DNA of 20,398 nucleotides from DATDCY01 sp031406795 [NCBI: Candidatus Rokuibacteriota bacterium] (lineage in GTDB: Bacteria > JAUVQV01). The notes beneath the pieces are model-generated. The model did no database searches. It worked only from the letters and a program-made list of their open reading frames with translations, and was not told where the DNA came from. How positions within the stretch are numbered: the stretch's first letter is position 1; each line of letters begins with the position of its first letter. Shown one piece after another: positions 11,114-20,398 of the stretch. The stretch covers positions 1-20,398 of the forward strand of contig JANOHV010000169.1 in assembly GCA_031406795.1 (NCBI GenBank), given 5' to 3'. A program made the translations under genes and the position numbers.

Positions 11114-11368
11114 ATGGCATCGCCGCACGTGAAGATGTACACGCTGAGTACCTGTCACCACTGCAAGGCCGCCAAGAAATTCCTGGCCAATTGCGGCGTT
11201 GAGTTCGAATTCACCGACGTGGACCAGTTCACCGGGGCCGAACGCGAGGCGATCATCGCCGAGGTCCGCCGCCTCAACCCCGAGTGTTCATTCCCGACGA
11301 TCATCATCGGGGACCAGATCATCATCGGCAACAATGAGGAGAACATCCGCAAGGCGCTCGGGCTGTGA
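11114..11368 (+). CDS. glutaredoxin-like dithiol redox protein
   Basis: A compact 84-residue thioredoxin-fold protein. The active site is C14-H-H-C17 after a short first strand (KMYTLST). The cis-proline strand is FPTII, and the GDQIIIGNNEENIRKAL tail matches the glutathione-site region of NrdH/glutaredoxin-like proteins. Such proteins reduce disulfides using a dithiol. Its last codon overlaps the start of a ferredoxin:thioredoxin reductase catalytic subunit, so the reductant is probably that enzyme rather than glutathione. The ATG at 11114 has AGGAAGGGGA 8 nt upstream and the candidate promoter at 11047-11076 before it. Annotators may call it glutaredoxin or thioredoxin; the CHHC site does not settle it. 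Confidence 0.87.
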   Translation: MASPHVKMYTLSTCHHCKAAKKFLANCGVEFEFTDVDQFTGAEREAIIAEVRRLNPECSFPTIIIGDQIIIGNNEENIRKALGL

Positions 11369-11697
11369 GCGACATCGAGCGCTTCCGCGAGATGATCCGC
11401 CAGGGGCAGGAGCCCCAGGGTTACTTCTTCAACCCGGACGACGAACTCGTCGACGAACTGATCGGCGCCCTGCTTGTGAACCGGGCGCGGTACGGGTACA
11501 TGGCCTGCCCCTGCCGCCTCGCCTCCGGCGTGCGCGAGAAGGACCGCGACATCATGTGCCCCTGCGTGTACCGTCCTCCGGATGTCATGGAGTATGGCAG
11601 CTGCTATTGCGGGCTGTACGTTTCCGCGGCCTTCAAAGCGGGAGAAGTGCCGAAGCGGCGGGTCCCCGAGCGCCGGCCGCCGGAGAAGGTGCTCTAG
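11365..11697 (+). CDS. ferredoxin:thioredoxin reductase catalytic (beta) subunit
   Basis: A 110-residue protein carrying the full cysteine signature: CPC (48-50), CPC (65-67) and CYC (80-82) followed by GLYV. In known FTR these cysteines hold a 4Fe-4S cluster next to a redox-active disulfide, taking electrons one at a time from ferredoxin to reduce a partner disulfide. The spacing between motifs (14 and 12 residues) differs from plant FTR (16 and 8) but suits bacterial and archaeal relatives. The GTG start overlaps the glutaredoxin TGA by 4 bp, so the two proteins are probably made together. No variable (alpha) subunit is adjacent. Its stop at 11697 directly abuts the stop of the convergent glycosyltransferase. 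Confidence 0.92.
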   Translation: MSDIERFREMIRQGQEPQGYFFNPDDELVDELIGALLVNRARYGYMACPCRLASGVREKDRDIMCPCVYRPPDVMEYGSCYCGLYVSAAFKAGEVPKRRVPERRPPEKVL

Positions 11698-14914: not shown

Positions 14915-16531
14915 ATGACCCTTCTCTGGAAGCGCAGCCGGGCGTACGCGGATTTCCTGCCGCGCCACCATCCGGCGGCGGGACTGCTCGCGGGCGTCGC
15001 GGAACTGCGCGCCGCCGGCAATTTCGCGTTCTCCCTCGCCCCCGACACGCTGCCCGAGCTGCGCCGGATCGCCCCCGACGTGCTCGCCGCGCTGCAGGAG
15101 CGGCACCGCGCGCTCGGTTCGCCGCCCGAGGTCTTCGCGAATCTGAGCCTGCTCGCCGACGGCGCCCCCGCGGTCGTCACCGGCCAGCAGGCGGGACTGC
15201 TCGGCGGTCCGCTCTTCACGCTGCTGAAAACCCTCACGGCGATCCGCACCGCCCGCGAGCTGACGGCGCGGCACGGGCGCCCCTTCGTGCCGGTCTTCTG
15301 GTCCGAGACCGAGGACCACGACCTCGACGAGGTGAATCAGGCCTGGACGCTCGGCGCGCAGGGTCCCGCGCGCTTCTCCCTCCCCGTCGCCGAGGAGCAC
15401 CGCGGCTCTCCCGTGGGGACCATCCCCCTCGGCCCCGGCGCGGCCGCCTTCCTCGAGGAGTTCTTCGCTGCCTCCCCGGCCACGGAGTTCACCCCCCCGC
15501 TGCTGGCGGGACTGACCGAGGACCTCCGCCGAAGCGCCGACTGGGGCACCTGGTTCTCGCGGCACCTGGACCGGCTTTTCGGCCGCCATGGCCTGGTCGT
15601 CGCCGACTCGATGGACCCGAAACTCGCCGCCTGCGCGCGGCTGCTCTGGGCCCGCGTGCTCGAAGAGCCGCTGTCGCTGACCGACATCTGCCAGGAGCGG
15701 GGCCGCTGGCTCGCCGGACAGGGGTACAAGCCGATCCTGCAGAAGACGGAGCAGCGCACGCCGTTCTTCCTGCTCGAGGCGGGAAAGCGACTGCCGGTGA
15801 ACTTCGAGCGCGGGGTGTTTCGCACCCCGCACGCCGACTACACCCTGATCGATCTGCTGCGCCGCCTCGACGACGCACCCGGCGATTTCTCGGCGGCGGT
15901 TCATCTGCGCCCGCAGCTGCAGGACTTCCTGCTGCCGACCGCGGCCTACATCGCCGGGCCGACCGAGCTGGCCTACTTCCTGCAGTTGCTCCCCGGGTAT
16001 CGGGCGCTGGGCATCCCGGCCCCGACGATCGTGCTGCGCGCCAGCCTCACGCTCGTCGAGCCGGCCGTCGAGAAGATCCTCGAGCGCTTCGACATCGACC
16101 CCGGCGACCTGAGCGAGGGGACCGATCGCGCCCTCACCGCGCTCGTGCGCCGCGAGCAGCGCTTCGCCGCGCCGGCGCTCTGGGAGCAAACGCGCGAGGC
16201 GGCGCTCAAGCCGGTCGCCGATCTTGCCGCGGACCTCGCCGCGGAGCACCCCGACCTGGCGCAACGCGCCGAGCAGACGCGCGGCAAAGTCGATTTCCTC
16301 CTCAAGGAACTCGAGTCGCGTTCGCTCGCGGAACTGCGGAAGAAATCCGAACTGGCGCGCGACCAGCTCGAGCGCGCCCGGGCCCGGCTCTATCCGAACG
16401 GCGTGCTCCAGGAGCGCACGCTTTCCGCGTATTATTTCCTCGGCAAGTACGGCCCGGGGCTGGTTGAGCAGCTCCTCGAGGGGCTGCCGCGGGACACGGC
16501 GCAGCATCATTTCGCGACGATCGCGCCCTGA
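14915..16531 (+). CDS. bshC: putative cysteine-adding enzyme of bacillithiol synthesis
   Basis: 538 residues, the normal length for BshC, which is thought to join cysteine to glucosaminyl-malate in the last step of bacillithiol formation. Clear family blocks are VVTGQQAGLLGGPLFTLLKT (87 on), the catalytic-core-like WSETEDHDLDEVN (129-141), and the later KPILQKTEQRTPFF and AAYIAGPTELAYF. The C-terminal third contains a long helical, charged segment (about residues 440-495) typical of the family's coiled coil. The ATG at 14915 is 17 bp after rsfS. The bshB and bshA genes follow directly, which confirms the pathway. Confidence 0.94.
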   Translation: MTLLWKRSRAYADFLPRHHPAAGLLAGVAELRAAGNFAFSLAPDTLPELRRIAPDVLAALQERHRALGSPPEVFANLSLLADGAPAVVTGQQAGLLGGPLFTLLKTLTAIRTARELTARHGRPFVPVFWSETEDHDLDEVNQAWTLGAQGPARFSLPVAEEHRGSPVGTIPLGPGAAAFLEEFFAASPATEFTPPLLAGLTEDLRRSADWGTWFSRHLDRLFGRHGLVVADSMDPKLAACARLLWARVLEEPLSLTDICQERGRWLAGQGYKPILQKTEQRTPFFLLEAGKRLPVNFERGVFRTPHADYTLIDLLRRLDDAPGDFSAAVHLRPQLQDFLLPTAAYIAGPTELAYFLQLLPGYRALGIPAPTIVLRASLTLVEPAVEKILERFDIDPGDLSEGTDRALTALVRREQRFAAPALWEQTREAALKPVADLAADLAAEHPDLAQRAEQTRGKVDFLLKELESRSLAELRKKSELARDQLERARARLYPNGVLQERTLSAYYFLGKYGPGLVEQLLEGLPRDTAQHHFATIAP

Positions 16532-16555
16532 GGATTTCGTAGCCAGCTGGAGACG

Positions 16556-17338
16556 ATGATGGCACCACCAAAGGCCCCGACGACCCCCTTCTCCACCTGC
16601 AACTTTCCGGCGAAGCGCAGCATCGGCGCAACCTCCGGGTGCGACCTGCTCGCGTTCGGTCCGCACCCCGACGACGTCGAACTGGTCATCGGCGGCACGG
16701 TCGCCGCCTGCGCCAAGGCCGGCTTGCGCGTAGTCGCGATCGAGATGACGCGCGGCGAAAGCGGCACGCGCGGGGACGCGGTGACCCGCGAGCGCGAGGC
16801 CTGCCGCGCCGCGAAGATCCTCGGGCTCGCCGGGCGCGAGAATCTCGGCCTCCCCGACGCCCACCTGGAATTCACGCTCGAATACCGCCACGCGGTCGCC
16901 GACGCGATCCGGCGGCACCGCCCCGAGGTCGTGCTCGCCCCCTGGTACGAAGACGCCCACCCCGACCACGCCATCGCCGGACGGCTCGTGCAGGCGGCGT
17001 TCTTCGAGGCGCGGCTAAAGAAACTCGCCGGGCCGGAGGGGCCGTGGTTCGCGCGGCTGCTCTACTACTATCCCTGCCGCAACTACCGCCAGCCCGACCT
17101 GGTCGTCGATGTCACGGAGGTCTGGAAGCTCAAGAAGAAGGCGATGTACGCCCACCGCTCGCAGGTCGGCAGCCGCTCGGTGCGCGCCGCGGGCTCGAGC
17201 GACGTCTTCGCGAACGTCGAGTTCCGCGACCGCCACTATGGCGCGCTGATCGGCCGCCCCTTCGGCGAGGGCCTGATCGCCAGCGCGCCGCTGCCGGTGA
17301 CCGACCCGCGCCAGATGCTCTTCGGAGAACGCCGGTGA
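16556..17338 (+). CDS. bshB1: bacillithiol biosynthesis N-acetylglucosaminyl-malate deacetylase
   Basis: PIG-L/LmbE-type zinc deacetylase, 260 residues, removing acetate from GlcNAc-malate. Zinc-site motifs are H37-P-D-D40 with E42 (FGPHPDDVELVIGG) and H135-P-D-H138 (EDAHPDHA). MTRGESGTRG (64-73), KKKAMYAHRSQ and FANVEFRDRHYGALIGRPFGE are characteristic of BshB1 rather than of other LmbE proteins. Two ATGs are in tandem (16556 and 16559); GGAGA at 16549-16553 favours the second by spacing. The first 28 residues look unstructured. The end overlaps the bshA GTG by 4 bp. Confidence 0.93.
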   Translation: MMAPPKAPTTPFSTCNFPAKRSIGATSGCDLLAFGPHPDDVELVIGGTVAACAKAGLRVVAIEMTRGESGTRGDAVTREREACRAAKILGLAGRENLGLPDAHLEFTLEYRHAVADAIRRHRPEVVLAPWYEDAHPDHAIAGRLVQAAFFEARLKKLAGPEGPWFARLLYYYPCRNYRQPDLVVDVTEVWKLKKKAMYAHRSQVGSRSVRAAGSSDVFANVEFRDRHYGALIGRPFGEGLIASAPLPVTDPRQMLFGERR

Positions 17339-18486
17339 GCGCCCGCGCCGCCCGCCGCCGCACGAAGCTGCGACTCGCCGTCGTCTGCTACCCGACCTTC
17401 GGGGGCTCGGGTGTCGTCGCCACCGAACTGGGCGTCGCGCTCGCCGGGCGCGGCCACCAGGTGCACGTGATCAGCACCGAATTTCCGGCGCGGCTGCGCA
17501 TCGTCGACGGGCTCACCTTCCACCGCGTACCCGTAGTCACCTACCCGCTCTTCCAGTACCCGCCCTACACGCTGGCGCTGGCGACCAAGGTCGCGCAGGT
17601 GATCCGTCAGGAGCGCCTCGATCTGGTGCACGCGCACTACGCCATCCCGCACTCGGTGGCGGTCTTTCTCGGCCAGCAGATGGGCGGCTGCGAGGTCAGG
17701 ACCGTGACGACGCTGCACGGCACCGACGTGCAGCTCGTCGGCCTCGACCCCTCGTACTGGGAGATCACCCGCTTCGGCATGCTGCGCTCCTCGGGCCTGA
17801 CCGCGGTGTCGCAGGCGCTCGCCGACACCACCCTGCGCGAATTCCACCTGGATCGCGAGGTGCGGGTCATCCCGAATTTCGTCGACACGAAGCGCTTCGC
17901 CCGCCCCCGGGACGCGAAGAAGCGCCGCGAGATCGCGCGCCCCGGCGAGCGGGTGCTGCTGCACGTCTCGAACTTCCGGCCCGTCAAACGCGTTTGGGAA
18001 GTCGTCGAGGTGTTTTCCCGCATCGCCGCCAGGATTCCGTCTCAGCTGTACATGATCGGCGACGGCCCCGATCGACCGCGCGCGGAGGCTGCGGCGCGCG
18101 AACTGGGCGTCGAGAGCCGCGTGCACTGCCTCAAGACCATCAGCGACGTCGAGGAGTGGTACGGCGCCGCCGACCTGCTGCTGCACCCCTCCGAAATGGA
18201 ATCCTTCGGCCTCGCGCCGCTGGAGGCGATGGCCTGCGGCGTCCCGGTGCTGGCCTACCGCGTGGGCGGTCTGCCCGAAGTCGTCGAGGACGGCAAGAGC
18301 GGGTATCTCCTGGACGTCGGCGATGTCGCGGGCCTGGCCGCTCGCGGCATCGAACTGCTCTCCGACCCCAGCCGCTGGGCGTCGTTCTCGCGGCGAGCCC
18401 GCCAGATCGCCGTGCAGCGTTTCGGCCAGGAAAAGATTGTCGACCGCTACGAAGAGTACTTTTTCGAGGTGCTGGGGCGGACGTAG
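17335..18486 (+). CDS. bshA: bacillithiol biosynthesis L-malate GlcNAc-transferase
   Basis: GT4 glycosyltransferase (383 residues) that couples UDP-GlcNAc to L-malate, the first step of bacillithiol synthesis. Family blocks: VVCYPTFGGSGVVATELG (16-33), HVISTEFPARL, FHRVPVVTYPLFQYPPYTLALATK, VHAHYAIPHSV (98-108) and TLHGTDVQLVG (126-136). In the second half are HVSNFRPVKR and the GT4 donor-site EX7E pair E289 and E297 (PSEMESFGLAPLEAM). GTG at 17335 starts inside the bshB stop. It is the last plus-strand gene before the integron, 26 bp from the convergent integrase stop, with no terminator-like hairpin plus T-run in between. Confidence 0.95.
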   Translation: MSARAARRRTKLRLAVVCYPTFGGSGVVATELGVALAGRGHQVHVISTEFPARLRIVDGLTFHRVPVVTYPLFQYPPYTLALATKVAQVIRQERLDLVHAHYAIPHSVAVFLGQQMGGCEVRTVTTLHGTDVQLVGLDPSYWEITRFGMLRSSGLTAVSQALADTTLREFHLDREVRVIPNFVDTKRFARPRDAKKRREIARPGERVLLHVSNFRPVKRVWEVVEVFSRIAARIPSQLYMIGDGPDRPRAEAAARELGVESRVHCLKTISDVEEWYGAADLLLHPSEMESFGLAPLEAMACGVPVLAYRVGGLPEVVEDGKSGYLLDVGDVAGLAARGIELLSDPSRWASFSRRARQIAVQRFGQEKIVDRYEEYFFEVLGRT

Positions 18487-18512: not shown

Positions 18513-19874
18513 TCAGTCCGCCGCGGGCGACTGCGCCAGCGCATCCGACGGGCTCCGAACCACCGACCCCGGCCGGTTCAGCACGTGCGTGTAGATCATC
18601 GTCGTCGAGACGTCCGCGTGGCCAAGCAATTCCTGCACCGTGCGGATGTCGTGCCCGGATTCGAGCAGGTGCGTCGCGAAGCAGTGGCGCAGCGTGTGGC
18701 ATCCGACAGTCCGCGGTATTCCGGCACGGCGCCCGGCACCCCGCACGGACTTCTGGAGCACCGTCTCGCACAGGTGCGGCCGTAGGACCCGGCCGTCACC
18801 GTCGCCGACCGCGAGCTTTGGTGCGGGGAAGACGAACTGCCAGGGCCATTCCCGCGCAGCGTTCGGCGACCGTGCCGCGACGCCCTCGGGAAGCGGGGCA
18901 GCGCCGAAACCGCGGGCCGCATCCCGCTCGTGCATCGCCCGGACCCGCTCCAGGTGCGCCAACAGGGCAGTCCGCACCCGCTGCGGGAGCACGGTGACGC
19001 GATCTTTGCGCCCCTTCCCCTCGTGGACCGTAATCCGGTTGCTCTCGAAATCCAGGTCGCGGACGCGCAGGCTCGCGCACTCCGCCAGCCGCAGGCCGGC
19101 GCCGTAGAGGAGTTCGGCCATGAGCGCGCAGATGCCCGTCATGGCGTCCAGAAGGCGGCGCACCTCGCCGGAACTCAAGACCACCGGGAGACGCTGCGGC
19201 CGCTTCGCCCGCGGGAATACGCCGATCTCGCCGACGGGGGTGCCGACCGCCCGCTCCAGAAAGAAGACCAGGGCGTTCAGTGCCTGGTTCTGCGTGCTCG
19301 CCGCGACAGCGTGGACCGTGGCCAGCCGTTCCAGAAATTCGCGCACCAGCTCGGCTGACGGGATTTTCGGGTCACGGCCGCGCCGGAATTCCATAAAACG
19401 CAGCGCCCAGCCCGCGTAGGCCCTCTCGGTTTTTGGAGAATAGCGCCGGACGCGAATCTCGGCGCGCAACCGCAGGAGCAACGGTTCCTCCTCCGGTGTC
19501 GCAACGAGCGGCGGCGATTTCTTCGCGGCTGCGTTGCACACCGGGCTCGCCTGCCAAGCCCATGGCCGAGCCCAGGGCGCAGCGAACACCTGCTGATAGA
19601 GGATGCGGAGTGCCTCCGAAGCCGTGTCGATCTTCCAGGGTGCGAGAGAGGGATTTCCCTGCAGTGCCGAGAGAAAATGCTCCACATCGGCCGGATTCCT
19701 GTCGCCCAGGGGAACAGCCGGGGAGGTATCCCTGAAACGTTTAACCCAGATCACGTACCAATAGGCCTGCGGATCGACAATGCCGTTTTGCCGCAAAGCC
19801 TTGTTGAAGTCACTCCAGCCCATTGAATTTACAGGAATATCACGCTTGACTCCTTGGTCGCCGCCCTCTACCAT
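18513..19874 (-). CDS. intI: integron integrase (tyrosine recombinase) with extra N-terminal domain
   Basis: A site-specific recombinase that inserts and excises gene cassettes between attI and attC sites. The 453-residue product has the whole tyrosine recombinase catalytic set: R262 (GAGLRLAE), K287 region (HEGKGRKDR), H393 and R396 (CHTLRH), H419 (LLGH) and Y428 (MIYTHVLNR). The insertion unique to integron integrases is present at about 311-352 (MHERDAARGFG, SPNAAREWPWQFVFP). The usual core-binding domain lies at about 130-215. Ahead of it is a further segment (about 18-105, WYVIWVKRF, ADVEHFLSAL, ASEALRILYQQV) resembling a second core-binding domain; ordinary IntI is 320-340 residues. The ATG at 19874 has AGGGAGGAA 9 nt upstream. 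Confidence 0.93.
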   Translation of the reverse strand: MVEGGDQGVKRDIPVNSMGWSDFNKALRQNGIVDPQAYWYVIWVKRFRDTSPAVPLGDRNPADVEHFLSALQGNPSLAPWKIDTASEALRILYQQVFAAPWARPWAWQASPVCNAAAKKSPPLVATPEEEPLLLRLRAEIRVRRYSPKTERAYAGWALRFMEFRRGRDPKIPSAELVREFLERLATVHAVAASTQNQALNALVFFLERAVGTPVGEIGVFPRAKRPQRLPVVLSSGEVRRLLDAMTGICALMAELLYGAGLRLAECASLRVRDLDFESNRITVHEGKGRKDRVTVLPQRVRTALLAHLERVRAMHERDAARGFGAAPLPEGVAARSPNAAREWPWQFVFPAPKLAVGDGDGRVLRPHLCETVLQKSVRGAGRRAGIPRTVGCHTLRHCFATHLLESGHDIRTVQELLGHADVSTTMIYTHVLNRPGSVVRSPSDALAQSPAAD

Positions 19875-20137
19875 GCCGGTGTTCCTCCCTGGCGTTGTTG
19901 ATTGCCGGTAATGGGAGTGCAAAGACCATGCTATACGCCGCCCAAGACGAGTGGACCAGACCGCTGCCTTGTCCCCAGGACTATCCCCCAACCCTCCCAT
20001 GCAGAAATAGGCAGCTGATATGGAGACCATACTATTCCGCTGTAGCCGAGAACCGACTACCGGGCGACCATGGAGATTGGGCGTCGCGCCCAGCCTGTTA
20101 AGAGTCTGTTAGCGACAAAAAGGATTACGAAAAGGAC
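19875..20137. other. candidate integron attI/leader region
   Basis: A 263-bp non-coding stretch between the start of the integrase gene and an outward-facing low-GC frame, the standard place for attI and the cassette promoter. It contains a 6-bp perfect palindrome (TGGGCG/CGCCCA, 20078-20092) and two direct CTGTTA copies 11 bp apart (20095-20100 and 20106-20111), giving GTTAAGA and GTTAGCG. Both resemble the GTTRRRY crossover core only partly (one and two mismatches). GC content falls sharply after about 20100. I cannot fix the crossover point or see a convincing cassette promoter. The short open frames on either strand in this stretch show no protein-like features. Confidence 0.5.
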
Positions 20138-20398
20138 ATGAAAGACCTACCCGAAAGCGATTGGAAGCTCCTCATGCTCATGAAGGACACACTACTTCGA
20201 AGAGCATCAAGAACTGCATTGGAACAAGTCAAACAGATCGTCATCGGTCCAGATGATGACCCGCACAAGGTATACCTCTAGCTTTGGGACACGCTGAAAA
20301 CTGAAGATGGCAAAATTGGACGAATGTTCGACAACATGAAGAGATCCACAGCAATACTCAAACTCGCAGAAATGATTCGGAACGAACTTATTAGGGAA
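20138..20398 (+). pseudogene. candidate first cassette gene, interrupted by an amber codon, cut by the window edge
   Basis: An ATG at 20138 opens a frame of 47 codons (MKDLPESDWKLLMLMKDTLL to DDDPHKVYL) ending in TAG at 20279-20281. The same frame then runs open for 39 codons to the last base (LWDTLKTEDGKIGRMFDNMK, then RSTAILKLAEMIRNELIRE). Both halves look like one soluble, helical, charged protein, so the TAG is probably a nonsense mutation; a single base change from AAG, CAG, GAG or TAC would restore it. From memory, the LPExDWK start and a later YLKLW-RRS-KL pattern recall a common family of roughly 120-residue uncharacterised bacterial proteins. GC is about 44%, against about 70% elsewhere. 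AAAGG motifs precede the ATG but spacing is poor. Function unknown. Confidence 0.6.

What the first reader, a model, noticed from the sequence alone, without database searches (positions are those of the whole stretch)
18513..20398. Integron platform at the edge of a housekeeping region
The integrase carries the IntI-specific insertion (SPNAAREW region) as well as the R, K, H, R, H and Y residues. It points away from a low-GC stretch that starts about 230 bp beyond its start codon. That geometry (intI reading away, attI, then cassettes) is how integrons are built. More cassettes would be expected past base 20398, and these usually carry undescribed genes.
Basis: partly seen in the sequence, partly recalled or inferred. 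Interest (0 to 1): 0.65.

Follow-up and report, generated by a model that had tools for sequence, protein, structure and literature searches.

The report
Integron integrase with duplicated DNA-binding domain
At the end of this stretch of an unidentified environmental bacterium sits a gene-capturing system (an integron) whose enzyme carries a second copy of its DNA-gripping domain, a build shared by many bacteria and often paired with a patterned docking site, although that pattern was not found in this copy.

Summary
The minus-strand gene at 18513-19874 encodes an intact integron integrase (TIGR02249, 388.8 bits, cut-off 265) that groups with integron integrases apart from XerC/XerD (support 100). 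GC falls from about 68% in most of the gene to 46% near 20200, where a cassette-like gene begins. That gene has full-length relatives elsewhere, but here a TAG interrupts it. No attC lies in the window and the contig could not be extended, so the array is inferred.

28 of 80 close relatives share this tandem layout, in several phyla; 12 of those 28 have attC hits on the expected side, some weak. Many tandem relatives have an attI with 9-bp sites at fixed places (-25, -33, -58 from the core-proximal copy) that vary together; 0 of 52 single-domain relatives reached the motif score. The window has no recognisable array.

Most likely this is a working kind of chromosomal integron whose extra domain helps grip attI. 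Which domain reads the repeats is not settled. New variant of a known kind.

The parts
18513..19874 (-). intI, integron integrase, 453 aa, tandem core-binding layout
   Evidence: TIGR02249 388.8 bits, cut-off 265; tree
19551..19829 (-). extra N-terminal core-binding (SAM-like) domain, residues 16-108
   Evidence: PF13495 32.6 bits, cut-off 27, residues 23-102; AF2 pLDDT 94.9, pTM 0.87; best match the core-binding domain of 2a3v, VIA-align Z 11.7, rmsd 2.8 over 91 residues
19230..19481 (-). canonical core-binding domain, residues 132-215
   Evidence: PF13495 best stretch 132-215
18579..19178 (-). catalytic tyrosine-recombinase domain, residues 233-432
   Evidence: PF00589 116.4 bits
18846..18869 (-). 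SPNAAREW, residues 336-343, in the IntI-specific insertion (name recalled)
   Evidence: aligned to 2a3v
19882..19890 (-). Shine-Dalgarno-like AGGGAGGAA before the intI start
   Evidence: read from the sequence
19875..20114 (+). presumed attI region; no array of the kind seen in relatives detected
   Evidence: negative; own short repeats only
20108..20114 (+). candidate attI core GTTAGCG (tentative; alternative GTTAAGA at 20097-20103)
   Evidence: TGTTAGCG also at the candidate attI core of relatives L009 and L163; ends 23 bp before the cassette ORF
20138..20398 (+). first cassette-like ORF, cut by the window's end; TAG at 20279-20281 after 47 codons
   Evidence: translation; relatives L183 (E 2.1e-15, query 1-87) and L184 (E 3.5e-12, query 3-85); alignments pass through the stop

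Best explanation
This is the platform end of a chromosomal integron beside a housekeeping region. The integrase is a tyrosine recombinase with two core-binding domains in tandem before the catalytic domain. It should exchange cassettes between folded single-stranded attC sites and the double-stranded attI just upstream of its gene, like other IntIs. The extra domain most likely adds a second DNA grip that helps hold attI, through accessory 9-bp sites where relatives have them. Shown here: integrase identity, the tandem architecture, its spread, attC sites beside relatives, and the structured attI of many relatives. Inferred: activity, attI in this genome, and what the extra domain binds.
For: IntI identity. 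Extra core-binding domain. The tandem layout occurs in 28 of 80 genome-contig loci and in 15 of the 30 best loci from 395 further genomes at over 45 bits, 18 if three weaker ones with two stretches are counted. attC hits on the cassette-sense strand upstream of tandem intI: 12 of 28 loci at E of 0.05 or less, and 5 of 19 further tandem loci. attI array: 38 extra 9-mer copies against 3.7 expected in 27 tandem regions plus the window (window 0), against 5 and 5.9 in 52 single-domain regions. In 26 loci a scan of all offsets from -9 to -62 on both strands ranks -25(+), -58(-), -33(-) first, and copies covary within a locus, 0 of 5000 permutations as high.
Against: The window shows no attC and no attI array. 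Its first cassette gene carries a stop codon, which may mean decay or a sequencing error. The motif trained on the first loci passed 11 bits in only 5 of 15 further tandem loci. The scan for protein residues that covary with the 9-mer put the ordinary core-binding domain first (residues 200 and 186), then residue 68 of the extra domain, with residue 83 lower. So ordinary binding by extra IntI subunits is not excluded.
Confidence: 0.6

Rival explanations
1. Ordinary integron integrase; the extra domain is structural (dimer contact, stability, or grip on attC) and the attI repeats, where present, are bound by extra IntI subunits through the normal domain, like DR1 and DR2 of attI1.
For: attI1 has two such direct repeats (PMC8946536, passages), although IntI1 has one core-binding domain (recalled). 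The two strongest residue-base links lie in the normal core-binding domain. The window keeps the extra domain but shows no array.
Against: Single-domain relatives in the sample show no such array (5 copies, 5.9 expected; 4 of 46 against 19 of 43 in the motif-free test). The two properties are confounded by descent.
Confidence: 0.3
2. A decayed or empty integron: the integrase is left over, its attI has drifted, and the gene to the right is a dead cassette or unrelated DNA.
For: In-frame TAG in the first cassette gene; no attI array; no attC.
Against: The integrase frame is intact, with the expected invariant residues; the GC drop and the position of the ORF fit a cassette. A single stop could be a sequencing error.
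Confidence: 0.2
3. Not an integron integrase but a Xer-like or phage recombinase that resembles IntI.
For: XerC and XerD models match, but under their cut-offs.
Against: TIGR02249 is over its cut-off; the IntI insertion is present; the IntI and Xer sides of the tree are separated with support 100.
Confidence: 0.02

Closest known systems
Integron integrases of class 1, 3 and Vibrio type (IntI1, IntI3, IntI4; PDB 2a3v)
   Same: Catalytic domain, IntI insertion, one core-binding domain of the same fold; aligned to 2a3v, with IntI3 on the same side of the tree. IntI1 is recalled.
   Different: The window protein has a second core-binding domain of about 90 aa in front; 2a3v and IntI3 align only from about residue 132-140 of it.
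attI1 of class 1 integrons with direct repeats DR1 and DR2
   Same: Extra recombinase-binding sites beside the crossover core (PMC8946536, passages).
   Different: Many tandem-type relatives have a dyad-symmetric set at -58(-), -33(-), -25(+) and 0(+), with the 9-mer changing together within a locus. Not seen in the window.
Complex tyrosine recombinases with an arm-binding domain (lambda Int)
   Same: An added N-terminal domain plus accessory sites near the core (PMC8138268, passages).
   Different: Here the added domain looks like a duplicated core-binding domain.

Membership tests
Integron | Integrase of the IntI clade with the IntI insertion | tested here: met
Integron | attI next to intI, with a crossover core | tested here: inconclusive
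   Candidate core GTTAGCG at 20108-20114 only; the relatives' motif was not found
Integron | attC sites downstream of attI | tested here: inconclusive
   None in the 524 bp available; hits in 12 of 28 tandem relatives
Integron | Cassette integration and excision activity | not testable with these tools
   needs an experiment
Simple tyrosine recombinases (core-binding plus catalytic domain), where PMC8138268 files integron integrases | A single core-binding domain | tested here: not met
   Two PF13495 stretches, fold models
Complex tyrosine recombinases with arm-binding domain | N-terminal domain of the arm-binding fold | tested here: inconclusive
   Pfam at E up to 10 lists only PF13495; the structure rows are headed by core-binding domains, but a family not listed there is not excluded

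The most novel reading that the evidence does not exclude
Tandem-core-binding integron integrases are a widespread second architecture in which the extra domain works as a home-made arm-binding module: it reads a symmetric, co-evolving array of 9-bp sites in attI and so steers cassette insertion. The classical single-domain integrases may descend from such a form by losing the domain.
Probability: 0.3. Interest if true: 0.75.

Novelty: new variant of a known kind. Interest (0 to 1): 0.52.

Why it matters
Integron integrases are filed as simple recombinases with one core-binding domain (PMC8138268, passages seen). A broad subgroup with two, often next to attC sites and a patterned attI, gives a natural system for asking how attI is recognised and why insertion at attI depends on the host in some integrons, a point raised in PMC8946536 (passages seen).

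Tried and rejected
Rfam gave nothing useful at the locus: one match, 16.4 bits under a gathering score of 64.5. A hand-made attC finder was weak: 8 hits upstream of 28 tandem genes against 3 in shuffles, so covariance models were built instead. Host: in the capped lists shown, arginyl-tRNA synthetase is 46-53% identical to homologues from 297 genomes of one phylum and 47-52% in 7 of 8 of another, so the host was not placed. The window's contig could not be extended. Whether the tandem form is ancestral stays open: with three remnant rows (L031, L052, L064) counted as tandem, the single-domain rows form one side of a branch (97), but holding all 33 tandem rows together is not rejected (AU p 0.8); with those three counted as single, the tandem label needs 4 changes.

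A first impression that one residue of the extra domain tracks base 4 of the 9-mer (note) was tested over all columns and did not single out that domain. The 23-mer motif, trained on 17 of the first loci, passed 11 bits in 5 of 15 further tandem loci (one of them, L159, the same genome as L018) and in 1 of 15 other loci, three of which probably also have the extra domain. Several of the rest have a different 9-mer in the same geometry. For L160, L165, L171 and L178 the core was picked by the array, and for L153 by eye, which biases; one search leaves these five out. In the motif-free test the best place was at the core in 13 of the 19 tandem loci that passed and elsewhere in 6 (L023, L034, L037, L153, L157, L163). 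Dropped before that count: L056 (run of N) and L177 (short) among tandem loci; L031, L052, L064 (remnant or diverged N-terminus) and L038, L043, L070 (short) among the others. L011 dropped out because its seed copy was not in the region scanned.

Literature: searches pairing 'integron integrase' with N-terminal extension, SAM-like, core-binding domain, additional N-terminal, duplicated, and arm-binding, and one with Thiocapsa, listed no paper whose title, abstract start or the passages I opened describe a second core-binding domain. Opened as passages only: PMC3414803, PMC8138268, PMC8946536; the rest were seen as listings. Subscription journals are not held.

Full report
The observation. The gene at 18513-19874 on the minus strand encodes an integron integrase. 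TIGR02249 scores 388.8 bits against a cut-off of 265, while XerC and XerD models stay well under theirs. The best solved relative is the integron integrase 2a3v (E 9.5e-74), aligned through the region of SPNAAREW. In a tree of 128 rows with 13 Xer rows, the 115 IntI rows including the window are separated from Xer with support 100. The GC drop is real, though GC begins to fall inside the gene. The gene's stop lies 26 bp from the convergent end of bshA. Ten ORFs of the rest of the window were scanned against NCBIfam: argS, dGTPase, cheB, rsfS, bshC, bshB1 and bshA pass a cut-off; PEP carboxykinase, nadD and an FtrB-like protein match below theirs.

The right end. An ORF starts at 20138, 23 bp after a candidate core GTTAGCG (20108-20114), and reaches the window's end except for one TAG at 20279-20281. 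Full-length relatives exist: L183 (E 2.1e-15, query 1-87) and L184 (E 3.5e-12, query 3-85), 2 of 299 genomes at E under 1e-10, and the alignments run through the TAG. None at E of 0.001 or less turned up in 297 genomes of another phylum, none at E of 1 or less in phages, and only one weak partial match in plasmids (E 0.6). Pfam and NCBIfam gave no match for it or for its relative in L183. So this is a real protein family, broken here by a stop or by a sequencing error. No attC was found.

The extra domain. The first 131 residues are not a ragged extension. PF13495, the core-binding SAM-like family, matches residues 23-102 with 32.6 bits against a cut-off of 27, besides the normal copy at 132-215. 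AlphaFold gives four helices at 20-96 that mirror the four at 130-210. Predicted alone, the domain has pLDDT 94.9 and pTM 0.87. Its best structural match is the core-binding domain of 2a3v: VIA-align Z 11.7, rmsd 2.8 over 91 residues, followed by Xer, then lambda Int and Cre core-binding domains among others. Foldseek gives TM 0.75 but only E 0.12 for the same chain, which is weak; and the tool warns that a Z under about 13 for helical bundles may mean only a common arrangement. The sequence match carries the claim.

Spread. An HMM of this domain, seeded with the window and 16 loci, finds it at over 50 bits in 28 of 80 genome-contig loci (12 outside the seed) and also matches the normal core-binding domain of all 80 at 11-35 bits, which supports duplication. 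Carriers include Pseudomonadota, Thermodesulfobacteriota, Nitrospirota and Nitrospinota records, a Thiodictyon plasmid (L152), and 15 to 18 of the 30 best loci from 395 further genomes, of which 134 had an IntI match at E of 1e-60 or less. These lists were ranked by likeness to the window, so they overstate the share. L023 and L031 have a stop inside this domain, and L052 keeps only its second part. Single-domain rows form one side of a branch (97), but the direction of change is not resolved.

These are integrons. A covariance model made from 11 attC sites of six loci finds attC on the cassette-sense strand upstream of the gene in 12 of 28 tandem loci at E of 0.05 or less. By construction it matches the six source loci. 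It also finds sites beside L064, L052 and the plasmid L152. 15 of the 28 contigs end within 1 kb upstream of the gene, as the window does, which limits the count; but L003 and L056 have nearly 10 kb upstream without a hit at that threshold. Among 19 further tandem loci L154, L157, L164, L171 and L178 have upstream hits.

attI of relatives. A 23-mer, TTCTGTCTA plus six bases plus the crossover TGTTRRRY, scores 11 bits or more in 23 of 28 tandem loci (17 of them seeds, scored leave-one-out) and in 0 of 52 single-domain loci. The 9-mer recurs at fixed places: 38 extra copies against 3.7 expected in 27 tandem regions plus the window, 5 against 5.9 in 52 single-domain regions. In 26 loci whose core was fixed by sequence, the three best of the offsets and strands scanned are -25(+), -58(-) and -33(-), mean match 4.54, 4.23 and 4.15 of 9 against a median of 2.5 (sd 0.49). 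Copies resemble their own core-proximal copy more than others' (17.23 against 15.86, sd 0.31, 0 of 5000 permutations). A test that assumes geometry but no motif gives 19 of 43 tandem loci and 4 of 46 single-domain loci at 5 or fewer of 100 shuffles (Fisher p 1.9e-4); in 13 of the 19 the place is the core. Variant 9-mers such as TTCGGCCTA (L160, L165), TTCAGTATA (L156) and GTCCGCATA (L178) appear with similar spacing. Held-out support for the exact motif is partial: 5 of 15 further tandem loci. The array sits at a fixed distance from the crossover and not from the start codon, which points to the recombinase rather than to a promoter regulator (inference).

What the window shows of this. Nothing firm: no 23-mer (53 of 60 shuffles score as high), no extra copies, no geometry signal (43 of 100 shuffles). 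It has only short repeats of its own and one 10-mer shared with the attI region of L154. Either its attI uses a different sequence and spacing, or it has decayed.

Mechanism and its limits. Standard integron recombination is inferred from family membership. A role of the extra domain at attI is suggested by the company it keeps, but descent confounds this. The residue scan put two residues of the ordinary core-binding domain first and one of the extra domain third, so it does not decide. DR1 and DR2 of attI1 (PMC8946536, passages) show that an integrase with one core-binding domain (recalled for IntI1) can use such repeats. PMC8138268 (passages) places integron integrases among simple recombinases with one core-binding and one catalytic domain; in the searches listed I found no description of the tandem form.

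Noticed in passing
L038, L027, L050, L024, L078: attC hits lie on the + strand downstream of intI (one hit each in L024 and L078), so the integrase reads towards its cassettes instead of away from them.
   Followed up: no
L004:3000-3490, L007:1-207, L037:1-257: The attI core reads TGATA instead of TGTTR and runs into an inverted repeat, as if something had inserted at attI.
   Followed up: no
L023:1-700, L031:800-1560: In-frame stop inside the extra core-binding domain, with the rest of the integrase open: possible ongoing loss of the domain.
   Followed up: partly
L152 (Thiodictyon plasmid pTs485): A tandem-type integron with several attC hits on a 485-kb plasmid.
   Followed up: partly
L030 and L148, same genome G010: One genome carries both a single-domain and a tandem-domain integron integrase.
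   Followed up: no
window 11365-11697: Small protein matching NF041072 FtrB double-selenoprotein family below its cut-off (49.5 of 160 bits).
   Followed up: no
window 14972-18483: bshC, bshB1 and bshA (bacillithiol synthesis) in a row just before the integron.
   Followed up: no
L183:1441-2878: The relative of the cassette protein lies downstream of a Fic-family gene on the same strand.
   Followed up: no
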